From Coprococcus comes ATCC 27758 (GTDB lineage: Bacteria; Bacillota; Clostridia; Lachnospirales; Lachnospiraceae): a DNA stretch of 64,000 nucleotides. The position numbers and the translations under genes were made by a program. Under the pieces are notes generated by a model. The model ran no database searches. It had not been told where the DNA came from and worked only from the letters and a program-made list of their open reading frames with translations. This document shows positions 3,715 through 25,357 of this stretch, piece by piece. Location: positions 2,108,001 to 2,172,000 of the forward strand of contig NZ_CP102277.1 of assembly GCF_025149785.1 (NCBI RefSeq). Direction: 5' to 3'. Numbering within the stretch: the first letter of the stretch is position 1; each line of letters starts with the position of its first letter.

Positions 3715-3718
3715 GTAG

Positions 3719-3792
3719 TAGCGGGAACTGGATTTGAACCAGCGACACCGCGGGTATGAACCGCGTGCTCTAGCCAACTGAGCTATCCCGCC
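3719..3792 (-). tRNA. tRNA-Met (CAT), elongator type
   Basis: The minus strand gives a 74-nt cloverleaf starting GGCGGGATAGCTCAG. The anticodon stem CGCGG/CCGCG encloses TTCATAC (anticodon CAT), and the T arm is CTGGTTCAAATCCAG. The acceptor stem GGCGGGA pairs with TCCCGCT; CCA is not encoded. The first pair is G-T, not the C-A mismatch of initiator tRNA, so elongator Met is favoured; tRNA-Ile with a modified CAT anticodon is less likely. Confidence 0.93.
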
Positions 3793-3898
3793 ATATGATA
3801 TGTTTTTGTACCAGCTCTTCAGAGCTGTGTGCATCGCACGAAGTGCTCGTCACATTTCGCGTTCAATGTTTTCGACTTTAAAAAACTTTCTCGCGAAA

Positions 3899-3971
3899 TG
3901 GGACCAATAGGGCTCGAACCTATGACCCTCTGCTTGTAAGGCAGATGCTCTCCCAGCTGAGCTATGATCCC
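3899..3971 (-). tRNA. tRNA-Val (TAC)
   Basis: Minus-strand 73-nt cloverleaf GGGATCATAGCTCAG..., anticodon arm CTGCCTTACAAGCAG with anticodon TAC, T arm TAGGTTCGAGCCCTA, discriminator A, no encoded CCA. It is the first gene of the two-tRNA unit. Confidence 0.95.
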
Positions 3972-4003
3972 ATATGTTCGTCCGTTTTACAACCGACTTC
4001 GTT

Positions 4004-22931: not shown

Positions 22932-23993
22932 TTATTCGAGCTTTTTCGGCTCATCCCTGTGGAATATGTCATCCAGCTCTGCCATCAGTGTCTTAAGCGT
23001 CTTCATGACATGTTCATAATCCATTCGCTTCGGTCCGATGATTCCGATGGTTCCCTGCATGCCCTCGCCCAACTCATATGTTGCTGTGACTACGCTGCAG
23101 TCTTTCATGTTCTCCACATTCGATTCATCTCCGATGTATACCTGAATGTCTCTGTCTTCACCGCCGTTTGCCATTGACTTTGTTACCAGAGCGGCAAGCT
23201 GCTGCTTTTCTTCAAAAGCACTGATGATCTCCTGTGCGCTCTGCTTATCACTAAGCTCCGGATACTTGAAAATATTCGTCGCGCCACTGGTGTAAATCTC
23301 CATGTCGTCATCCAGCTGGATCACATTCGCTACTGCATCCAGGACACTGCTCATCACACCACTGTGGATCCCTGCCTGTTCTTTCAGTCTTGCAATCACT
23401 CCCAGATTGATCTGCTCTAGTGAAGTTCCATTCAGCGAAGTATTCAGAAGCATATTCAGCTTCAATAGTGCTTCATTGCTGAGCGGCTCATCCAGTGTCA
23501 CGATCTGGTTCTTTACAATGTTGCCTTCCATCACGATCACAACGATCAGCTGATGGTCATCAACCTGTGAAAGCTGGATAAATTTTAATTTGTTCCCGTT
23601 GTAAGTCGGAGTCGAAATCATCGTCGCATAATTCGTGTTGTTCGCAAGAACCTTTGCAACCTGCTTCAGAAGTTCTTCCATCTTGTCAGCCTTCTCAAGC
23701 ATCTGACCTTTGATTTCGGTAATCTCCTGTTCTTTCTGGCTCATCAGCATATCCACATACCATCTGTAACCTTTATCCGACGGAATCCTTCCTGCTGATG
23801 TGTGAGGCTGCATGATATAACCAAGCTCTTCGAGATCTGCCATCTCATTCCGGATCGTTGCCGAACTTAAATTCAAATCCGTATACTTGGAAATCGTTCT
23901 GGATCCCACAGGCTCTCCGGTCTCAAGATAGTTCTTAATGATTGCATGTAAGATCTTCGTCTTCCGCTCACTAAGTTCCTGTATGGCTTCCAT
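22932..23993 (-). CDS. hrcA: Heat-inducible transcription repressor HrcA
   Basis: 353 residues. N-terminal winged helix (1-75: KTKILHAIIKNYLETGEPVG, then SSATIRNEMADLEELGY) binds CIRCE; the GAF-like domain and dimerisation region follow (GNKLKFIQLSQVDDHQLIVV), ending with IGIIGPKRMDYEHVMKTL. Represses its own operon; GroEL normally helps it fold, but groE is not in this window. First gene of the operon with a GGAGG ribosome site. The CIRCE operator lies 20 bp upstream. Confidence 0.97.
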   Translation of the reverse strand: MEAIQELSERKTKILHAIIKNYLETGEPVGSRTISKYTDLNLSSATIRNEMADLEELGYIMQPHTSAGRIPSDKGYRWYVDMLMSQKEQEITEIKGQMLEKADKMEELLKQVAKVLANNTNYATMISTPTYNGNKLKFIQLSQVDDHQLIVVIVMEGNIVKNQIVTLDEPLSNEALLKLNMLLNTSLNGTSLEQINLGVIARLKEQAGIHSGVMSSVLDAVANVIQLDDDMEIYTSGATNIFKYPELSDKQSAQEIISAFEEKQQLAALVTKSMANGGEDRDIQVYIGDESNVENMKDCSVVTATYELGEGMQGTIGIIGPKRMDYEHVMKTLKTLMAELDDIFHRDEPKKLE

Positions 23994-24013
23994 ATGCTAC
24001 CTCCTTTTTGTTA

Positions 24014-24040
24014 TTAGCACTCGTTATGTCTGAGTGCTAA
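24014..24040 (-). promoter_or_regulatory. CIRCE operator of the hrcA operon
   Basis: Perfect inverted repeat TTAGCACTC-N9-GAGTGCTAA (24014-24022 and 24032-24040), the canonical HrcA-binding site, located between the promoter and hrcA. Confidence 0.98.
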
Positions 24041-24057
24041 CATTTTCTACGCTTATA

Positions 24058-24086
24058 AATGTACCACTTACTATTCACTTTGTCAA
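24058..24086 (-). promoter_or_regulatory. Promoter of hrcA-grpE-dnaK-dnaJ
   Basis: TTGACA (24081-24086), 17 bp, TACATT (24058-24063); the expected start falls close to CIRCE so that HrcA blocks it. Confidence 0.8.
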
Positions 24087-24116
24087 CAGGGTTTATGATT
24101 TTTTTATTTTTAGTCC

Positions 24117-24278
24117 GGTTCCACCCGGATATGCTGTCGGATTCCAATTCAATCGGCAAACCATTCCGATGAGCCTCTGAAAGCGAACATTATGTCAGCA
24201 AAGGCTTCCATAATGTTCTGAGTCTCCTCTCCATTGCCTCAAATGAATTGGAATCCGACAGCATATCCGGGTGGAACC
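24117..24278 (+). repeat. Structured repeat element, copy 1, with perfect 35-bp arms
   Basis: Arms 24117-24151 and 24244-24278 are perfectly complementary over 35 bp. The 92-nt interior contains GAACATTATG (24185-24194) pairing with CATAATGTTC (24209-24218). The inner part, from GGATTCCAATTCA to TGAATTGGAATCC, is shared with copy 2 at 24633-24850 in opposite orientation, while the outer arm sequences differ entirely between copies. Compensatory base changes in the internal stem suggest a folded RNA. Confidence 0.85.
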
Positions 24279-24395
24279 TCACTCAAGCCTATAATAATCG
24301 ACTTGATTTGGGCGCTTACAGGACATACTATAAAGGATTTACTTGCTTCTTTAACAATACTGTATTGCGTGGGGCGGGACTTAATGGCTGCGCCA

Positions 24396-24535
24396 TTTTC
24401 GTCCGCAAATATTGGGATCGGACTGTTTGAAGATGATGTATTTTCTACTTTCTGGGACTACGCTGTTTTTGTCTGCGAATTTTGGGATTAGGCTGTTTTG
24501 AGATGATGCATTTTCTACTTTCTGGGAGCTCCACA
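24396..24535. repeat. Degenerate tandem duplication, unit about 70 bp
   Basis: Two diverged copies (24396-24465 and 24466-24535) share TCnGCnAAT, TTTGGGAT-like and ATTTTCTACTTTCTGGGA segments. They lie between the two structured repeat copies. No gene is supported here. Confidence 0.6.
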
Positions 24536-24632
24536 CTTCCACTTAACCAACAACTGGCTGGAGCAACCGGTTTTTTCCGCACATCATCAGACTGGGGCGT
24601 CCCGTCTGTATGTTTTCTGTCTTCCAGGAAGA

Positions 24633-24850
24633 GGGTGGGGAGTTTGGGAGGAAAGGGGCGGGGCGACCAGGCAGAAAAGAAGGGATTCCAATTCATTTGA
24701 GGCAATGTAGATGAGACTCAAATCATTGTGGAAGCCATTTCTGACACAATGATTGCTTTCGGAGGCTCATCGGAATGGTTTGCCGATTGAATCGGAATCC
24801 CTTCTTTTCTGCCTGAACCGCCTGCTCCCTTCCTCCCAAACTCCCCACCC
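24633..24850 (-). repeat. Structured repeat element, copy 2, inverted, with extended arms
   Basis: Inner arms 24669-24695 and 24788-24814 match over 27 bp with one mismatch that becomes G-U on the minus strand; outer arms 24633-24653 and 24830-24850 match perfectly over 21 bp. The interior is the reverse complement of copy 1 with substitutions. The internal stem here is AATCATTGTG/CACAATGATT (minus strand), compensated relative to copy 1 at three pairs. Confidence 0.85.
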
Positions 24851-24910
24851 GACCGTCAAACAAAAAATACACACCCCAGCCTCCCGGTCTGATGGTGTGC
24901 ATTTCTTCTA

Positions 24911-25357
24911 TTATATATAGTACATATCCTGACTGTATTCACTGTATTCCTGATATTTTTGTTCGAGGTCAGAGAGAAACAGATTCTCAAGGATATCCTG
25001 TAGTCCTCTGTTCAGACGTTCGATAACTTCACTCTGTACAGCCTGAGCCGCAGCTCTTCCGTTCTCGGCGCCTTCTACATCCTCTTCTTCGATGAGATAA
25101 TCACCTTCCAGCGCACGTAATATTTCCGCAACCGAAATCTTTGTGGCAGGCTTCGCCAACAGGTATCCCCCCTGCGGTCCTTTCACGCTTTTAATGATTC
25201 CGGCTTTTCTGAGTGCCGCAAATACCTGTTCCAGATACTGCGGTGAAATACTGTTACGCTCTGCAATTGCTGCAAGTGCAACATGGGATTCTTTTGAGTA
25301 TACGGACAGGTCGATCAGTGCCCGAAGTCCGTATCTGCTTTTCTTTGAAAAATTCAT
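24911..25357 (-). CDS. Rrf2-family transcriptional regulator (CymR-like)
   Basis: 148 residues. N-terminal winged helix with MNFSKKSRYGLRALIDLSVYS and ISPQYLEQVFAALRKAGI, typical of Rrf2. The iron-sulfur Cys triad of IscR/NsrR is absent, which with the cysK neighbour favours CymR, the cysteine-metabolism repressor that in Bacillus works together with CysK. It starts 3 bp after cysK stops, so the two form an operon. Inverted CCTA/TAGG half-sites in the cysK promoter are candidate operators. The CymR assignment is inference from context. Confidence 0.82.
   Translation of the reverse strand: MNFSKKSRYGLRALIDLSVYSKESHVALAAIAERNSISPQYLEQVFAALRKAGIIKSVKGPQGGYLLAKPATKISVAEILRALEGDYLIEEEDVEGAENGRAAAQAVQSEVIERLNRGLQDILENLFLSDLEQKYQEYSEYSQDMYYI

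What the first reader, a model, noticed from the sequence alone, without database searches (positions are those of the whole stretch)
24117..24278. Structured element with compensatory changes (copy 1 versus copy 2)
Two inverted copies share a roughly 120-nt core. Their internal 10-bp stem is GAACATTATG/CATAATGTTC in copy 1 and AATCATTGTG/CACAATGATT in copy 2: three positions change and each is compensated on the opposite arm. Copy 2's one arm mismatch becomes G-U when read in the matching orientation. This is strong evidence for selection on a folded RNA (or ssDNA) and not for protein.
Basis: seen in the sequence. Interest (0 to 1): 0.72.

Follow-up and report, generated by a model that had tools for sequence, protein, structure and literature searches.

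The report
Mobile hairpin DNA with self-copying arms
The hairpin belongs to a family of small mobile DNA elements of gut bacteria, and its matching 'compensatory' changes look like one arm of a DNA palindrome being copied onto the other, not like ordinary selection on a folded RNA.

Summary
The two copies belong to a family of mostly intergenic hairpins: 29 model matches in this genome, 44 in one I take to be Coprococcus comes, and matches in 23 of 397 genomes drawn from the family. Each is a conserved ~90-nt core on an outer stem that differs between most copies yet stays palindromic. Core covariation is extreme: 25 of 28 pairs, 444 of 3045 cells, 0/500 shuffles.

The RNA inference does not follow. 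The core's two long helices hold 1938 Watson-Crick, 7 G-T, 7 A-C and 9 other cells; ten tRNAs here have 14 G-U and no A-C in 217 pairs. Arm mismatches show no significant strand bias (97 versus 79, p 0.20). A conserved TC/TC loop is paired in 11 of 119 copies, as GA/TC (10) or TC/GA (1), the two products of copying one arm onto the other.

Relatives show transposition: 7-bp target duplications in one genome, 11-12 bp in another, with different ends around the same core. Best reading: a fold-back, MITE-like element whose arms evolve together by template switching. No transposase was found; the core is constrained; RNA function is untested.

The parts
24109..24151 (+). copy 1, 5' arm of the outer stem (P2); same stem at the orthologous site of G002, not seen in other copies
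   Evidence: I3, 93% complementary to 24244-24286
24152..24240 (+). copy 1 conserved structured core
   Evidence: R1 match G000:C1:2132152-2132240, 92.7 bits, E 3.6e-27
24185..24194 (+). copy 1 internal stem, 5' side GAACATTATG
24209..24218 (+). copy 1 internal stem, 3' side CATAATGTTC
24244..24286 (+). copy 1, 3' arm of the outer stem
24633..24695 (-). copy 2, outer arm (3' arm in the element's orientation)
   Evidence: I2, 87% complementary to 24788-24850
24699..24787 (-). copy 2 conserved structured core, inverted
   Evidence: R1 match G000:C1:2132699-2132787, 89.1 bits, E 6.5e-26
24721..24730 (+). copy 2 internal stem arm AATCATTGTG
24745..24754 (+). copy 2 internal stem arm CACAATGATT
24788..24850 (-). 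copy 2, outer arm (5' arm in the element's orientation)

Best explanation
The two hairpins are copies of a small, non-autonomous fold-back element of the MITE kind, dispersed mainly in intergenic DNA of several Lachnospiraceae. Shown: a conserved ~90-nt core sits between long palindromic arms. In two related genomes recent copies carry terminal inverted repeats and target-site duplications (7 bp in G061, 11-12 bp in G214). Inferred: DNA transposases of at least two kinds have moved elements with this core, acting in trans, because no enzyme with matching ends was found. Inferred from pattern: the matching changes on the two arms and in the core helices arise mainly because a replication fork (or a repair polymerase) switches template inside the palindrome and copies one arm onto the other. 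A change on one arm is then doubled or erased in one step, giving covariation without G-U intermediates and without a need for RNA selection. The core is under some constraint whose cause is unknown; recognition of the folded (cruciform or single-stranded) form is possible.
For: Dispersed copies: 29 in G000, 44 in G002, in 5 of 61 genomes and 23 of 397. TSD and TIR: G061 7 bp, 7 of 12 elements against 4 of 132 mis-paired flanks, signal only at width 7 of 4-11; G214 8 of 25 at width 11 and 8 of 25 at width 12, against 0 of 600 each. Watson-Crick-only covariation: core helices H2+H3 WC 1938, GT 7, AC 7, other 9; arms WC 5459, GT 97, AC 79, other 312 over 137 copies; tRNA control 14 G-U and 0 A-C of 217. 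Concerted changes at one site between sister genomes: 55 double changes that still pair against 27 single, 44 of the 55 in 3 of 22 pairs. Six young G061 copies without indels have 15 changes shared by both arms, e.g. GGG to TAA in L192, whose duplication is intact, beside 15 on one arm only. Internal loop TC/TC paired as GA/TC (10) or TC/GA (1) in 11 of 119 copies. Orientation relative to tandem genes is mixed. Template switching is a published mutation route with these footprints (PMC8794818: abstract and passages read).
Against: TIRs and TSDs were not shown for the window's own copies or for any copy of G000/G002; 26 of 30 G000 loci share their flanks with a copy-bearing G002 locus, so these insertions are old. 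Template switching makes arms alike but does not supply new sequence: the most rewritten stems (L003/L124, L013/L129, L026/L102) share at most 8-11 nt with any other known copy, so their origin is unexplained. Young copies are not perfect: L167 has 5 one-arm changes and no shared one. The core diverges less than its flanks between sister genomes (32/1355 and 24/616 against about 6%), so neutrality is not the whole story. The helix next to the outer stem does have more G-T (33) than A-C (9), 30 of the 33 at one pair. The tRNA control is small. Copies are related, so cells are not independent events.
Confidence: 0.55

Rival explanations
1. A structured non-coding RNA (or RNA domain) encoded by each copy, kept by selection on the RNA fold.
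For: Very strong covariation in the core; some unpaired positions such as CATT, the apical loop ends and TCCA are nearly invariant; the core is less diverged than flanks between sister genomes; two copies sit beside the same gene in another genome (L008/L178 and L007/L170).
Against: G-U is 0.36% in the long core helices and equals A-C, against 6.5% and none in tRNAs of the same genome; orientation relative to tandem genes is mixed (4 same/13 opposite, 8/15, 25/13); no Rfam family at gathering score; unpaired columns are on average no more conserved than paired ones (0.85 against 0.83, p 0.33); copies with the internal loop paired or the apical hairpin deleted persist. No expression data.
Confidence: 0.2
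2. A DNA structure under selection: the folded single strand or cruciform is recognised by a protein (transposase, recombinase or host factor), and the core loops are the recognition sites.
For: Watson-Crick-only pairing with some nearly invariant unpaired positions; strand-symmetric arm mismatches; same core inside elements with different terminal repeats and duplication lengths.
Against: No protein identified; 4 of 5 core-less 131-bp and 55-bp derivatives in G214 also show a duplication, so the core may not be needed for movement, although deletion after insertion is not excluded.
Confidence: 0.2
3. A fixed intergenic feature such as a transcription terminator or insulator that only looks repeated.
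For: In G000 few copies lie between divergent genes (17 tandem, 9 convergent, 1 divergent).
Against: No terminator-like site was found at the two hairpins in the consensus scan of 23900-25000; recent dispersal with target duplications in relatives.
Confidence: 0.05

Closest known systems
[quoted passage not shown]
   Same: Short, non-coding as far as seen, multi-copy, mostly intergenic, with terminal inverted repeats and target-site duplications in recent copies of relatives.
   Different: A structured core is shared by elements with unrelated ends and different duplication lengths, while the arms between core and ends differ between most older copies. No autonomous partner found.
Template-switch (quasipalindrome) mutagenesis, PMC8794818
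   Same: Multi-base compensatory changes made in one step and repair of base pairing in existing stems. Abstract and passages read.
   Different: That paper works from reconstructed histories of RNA genes; here it is a mobile DNA family, with arms up to 128-136 nt and whole-stem replacement that the mechanism alone does not explain.
REP sequences and REPINs moved by RAYT (PMC3116915, PMC2817692; search listings and abstract starts only)
   Same: Dispersed extragenic palindromes, often in alternating orientation.
   Different: Target-site duplications and long terminal inverted repeats are present in relatives here; RAYT genes were not searched.
Plant microRNA precursors (weak Rfam hits MIR1858, MIR831)
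   Same: Long hairpin shape only.
   Different: All below gathering score; shape similarity, not relationship.

Membership tests
MITE | short, multi-copy, dispersed | tested here: met
   233-235 bp in G061, mostly 283-287 or 333-334 bp in G214; 29 and 44 copies in G000 and G002
MITE | terminal inverted repeats | tested here: met
   GATGTGGGTG... in G061 and TAGGYAATTGCGAAACT in G214; not shown for G000/G002 copies
MITE | target-site duplication | tested here: met
   7 bp in G061 and 11-12 bp in G214 with mis-paired controls; not shown for the window copies
MITE | related autonomous element with the same ends | tested here: not met
   none by TIR pattern in five genomes (list capped); six PF01609 hits in G214 have no end within 3 mismatches of the TIR; other transposase families not searched
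MITE | no conserved protein coding | tested here: inconclusive
   of ORFs of at least 80 aa only two TTG-start ORFs of 85 and 86 aa touch the window copies; conservation of reading frames was not tested
structured non-coding RNA | covarying fold | tested here: met
structured non-coding RNA | RNA-type pairs: G-U tolerated on one strand, A-C not | tested here: not met
   control; exception one pair beside a loop with 30 G-U
structured non-coding RNA | expression of the folded strand | not testable with these tools
   no transcript data
structured non-coding RNA | match to a known Rfam family | tested here: not met
REPIN/RAYT | RAYT (Y1) transposase and insertion without target duplication | tested here: inconclusive
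   duplications present in relatives; RAYT gene not searched; the defining feature is recalled
intrinsic terminator | GC-rich hairpin followed by a T run | tested here: not met
   three sites in 23900-25000, none at the two hairpins

The most novel reading that the evidence does not exclude
The core is a structure-defined module that does not depend on one transposase. It has been carried by elements of at least two different transposases (7-bp and 11-12-bp duplications, unrelated ends) in different Lachnospiraceae, is held by recognition of its folded DNA, and keeps itself palindromic by template switching while the outer arms, including the ends that decide which transposase moves it, are rewritten. 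It would be a mobile element whose identity lies in a fold and not in its ends.
Probability: 0.22. Interest if true: 0.82.

Novelty: new variant of a known kind. Interest (0 to 1): 0.6.

Why it matters
Covariation is widely treated as the best evidence for a functional RNA. This family shows covariation in 25 of 28 pairs, far above shuffles and slid controls, with features pointing to DNA template switching instead. That suggests a practical test (G-U against A-C, strand symmetry, loops turned into stems) for screening RNA candidates made of long hairpins. If the core really travels with different transposases, it also raises the question of what a non-autonomous element needs to keep when its ends change.

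Tried and rejected
Hammerhead-like reading of GATGA...GAAAGC: rejected by eye, because copy 2 changes the motif. Rfam at a loose threshold gave, at the hairpins, microRNA-shaped hits and other weak matches, all below gathering score. Copying of whole stems from other family copies: the longest stretch that a stem of the five most changed ortholog pairs shares with any other copy is 8-11 nt (no chance expectation was computed). Acquisition of stems from phages: one core pattern and three exact stem patterns gave no hit in viral contigs (three stems of many). The copy 1 element gave no match in plasmids or phages. A recurrent neighbour gene: apart from the core itself read as protein, the largest clusters among 1912 ORFs were weakly similar common families, one of them sensor histidine kinases at about five distinct sites; none looked like a partner. 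A partner transposase: none. G000 counterparts of two G002 copies (L101, L110) look like remnants from which the hairpin is lost, because element arm or linker sequence remains. One G002 copy (L125, minus strand) is absent at the G000 site, but insertion and deletion cannot be told apart there. Two rows (L104+2519, L107-1783) were false core hits and were dropped before the counts. Of 24 ortholog pairs, two (L007/L126, L008/L103) were left out of the counts because one member lacks its 3' arm. Literature: the listings showed no paper on this family; only PMC8794818 was opened, and the library is open-access PMC only.

Full report
Where it is. The window lies in a 3.37-Mb single-contig genome (G000) whose hrcA locus is 97% identical to that of G002. 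The hairpins sit between hrcA (22932-23993, minus strand) and an Rrf2 regulator (24911-25357, minus strand), with a PALP-family enzyme gene beyond; HSP70, HrcA, Rrf2 and PALP matched Pfam. A CIRCE-like palindrome (name recalled) lies at 24014-24040 in front of hrcA.

The observation. The shared part is 118 nt at 90%. Outside it each copy continues into a longer palindrome, and these outer arms do not resemble each other. A search of the same genome gave 29 loci, of which L023 and L024 are broken and L029 is weak by BLAST; the covariance model added one more (L134) and confirmed L029. Folding 28 of them shows the same plan in nearly all: a core of about 90 nt on an outer stem that differs between copies and is palindromic. 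Exceptions are the broken L023 and L024, and L008, whose 3' arm is lost.

The core. On 26 own-genome cores, 18 of 29 pairs have changes on both sides (77 cells; shuffled mean 20.6; slid controls 5-16). The covariance model R1 found 29 places in G000, 44 in G002, 5 in G022, 1 each in G019 and G032, and none in the other 56 of 61 genomes. In a wider draw, 23 of 397 genomes have matches at E up to 1e-5; that call uses stricter filters and scores at most 11 candidates per genome, so both figures are floors. Seven genomes reached through a pattern search have 7 to 25 copies each. Over 114 matches in 100 loci chosen from those held (109 distinct), 25 of 28 pairs show double changes, 444 of 3045 cells. 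These are related copies, so cells are not independent events, and the alignment was fitted to the model.

Why this is probably not RNA selection. First, pair types: in the two long core helices there are 1938 Watson-Crick, 7 G-T, 7 A-C and 9 other cells. The helix next to the outer stem has 33 G-T and 9 A-C, and 30 of the G-T cells are at one pair beside a loop. In the outer arms, scored so that G-T and A-C cost the same, 137 copies gave 5459 Watson-Crick, 97 G-T, 79 A-C and 312 other mismatches; 97 against 79 is not a significant strand bias (p 0.20). In 10 tRNAs from 400 kb of the same genome there are 14 G-U and no A-C in 217 pairs. Second, tempo: between 22 orthologous copies of G000 and G002 the outer stem has 55 double changes that still pair, 1 double that does not, and 27 single changes. 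The doubles are concentrated in L003 (15), L013 (13) and L026 (16), while most other stems change little. Divergence is 158/1581 in the outer arms, 302/2648 in the linker zone, 32/1355 in core helices, 24/616 in unpaired core, and 1706/20195 in flanks, or 1119/18232 without the two badly aligned flanks L011 and L019. Third, a conserved internal loop: of 119 copies caught by the motif used, 101 have TC/TC and 7 other open forms, while 11 are perfectly paired, ten times as GA/TC and once as TC/GA, the two products expected if one arm is copied onto the other; the ten may share one event. Fourth, in six young G061 copies without indels, 15 differences from their consensus are shared by both arms and 15 are on one arm only. 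Some of the shared ones are inherited by several copies. Independent point mutation would make matched pairs of changes far rarer than single ones, yet the arms of young copies are clearly not perfect either: L167 has five one-arm changes and no shared one. L192, with an intact duplication, has GGG changed to TAA on both arms and nothing else. These footprints match template switching in DNA replication as described in PMC8794818 (abstract and passages).

Against that reading. The core is less diverged than its surroundings, so something holds it. Unpaired columns are on average as conserved as paired ones (0.85 and 0.83, p 0.33), but several are nearly invariant. Template switching equalises arms; it does not explain where the new sequence of a rewritten stem comes from, and no other known copy is the source. 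I have no transcript data.

Mobility. In G061 a recent group of copies is 233-235 bp long with ends GATGTGGGTG/CACCCACATC. Flanking 7-mers agree in 7 of 12 elements (at least 85% identity) against 4 of 132 mis-paired flanks, and no other width from 4 to 11 shows a signal. In G214 the element is mostly 283-287 or 333-334 bp with ends TAGGYAATTGCGAAACT; 8 of 25 elements agree at width 11 and 8 of 25 at width 12 (at least 90%), against 0 of 600 controls at each. So the same core is found in elements with different ends and different duplication lengths, which by established knowledge of DDE transposases points to different enzymes. G214 also has 131-bp and 55-bp derivatives without the core, 4 of 5 with a duplication; whether they moved by themselves or lost the core after insertion is open. 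No transposase with either set of ends was found, but lists were capped, assemblies are incomplete and only one transposase family was searched. In G000 and G002, 26 of 30 loci share flanks, and ends and duplications could not be defined; two G002 copies correspond to what look like remnants in G000.

Context. By a rough ORF-based reading, 27 of 27 placed copies of G000 are intergenic (17 tandem, 9 convergent, 1 divergent); G002 has 23 tandem, 15 convergent, 3 divergent and 2 at contig edges of 43; other genomes 38, 13, 11, 3 at edges and 2 inside an ORF of 67. Orientation against tandem genes is not consistent across genomes, which does not favour a cis-acting RNA.

Conclusion. The finding is a real, conserved, mobile hairpin family of the MITE kind whose covariation looks DNA-made. 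Membership in MITEs rests on relatives, not on the window's own copies. The most surprising point, the same core with two kinds of ends, deserves a targeted search for the enzymes.

Noticed in passing
G000 and G002 places; G022:C69:230-731; G390:C16:11083-11455: Copies within 1 kb of each other form inverted pairs, and all pairs I read from the lists have the order plus then minus (3 in G000, 6 in G002, some of them orthologous, 1 in G022, 1 in G390).
   Followed up: partly
24388-24527: A 70-nt unit is duplicated in tandem (81% identity) in the spacer between the two hairpins.
   Followed up: no
L013/L129, L003/L124, L026/L102: At the same chromosomal site much of the outer stem is replaced on both arms between sister genomes; the source of the new sequence is unknown.
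   Followed up: partly
L172, L177, L184 (G065): Palindromic arms of 106 to 136 nt with 1 to 4 mismatches around the same core; such long palindromes are usually unstable in bacteria (recalled).
   Followed up: no
L206-L209 (G061), L214 (G065): Copies in which the apical part of the core is gone (core 39-42 nt) while the arms remain largely paired.
   Followed up: no
697-937 minus; 3718-3792 and 3898-3972 minus: A T-box leader and two tRNA genes, Met and Val.
   Followed up: no
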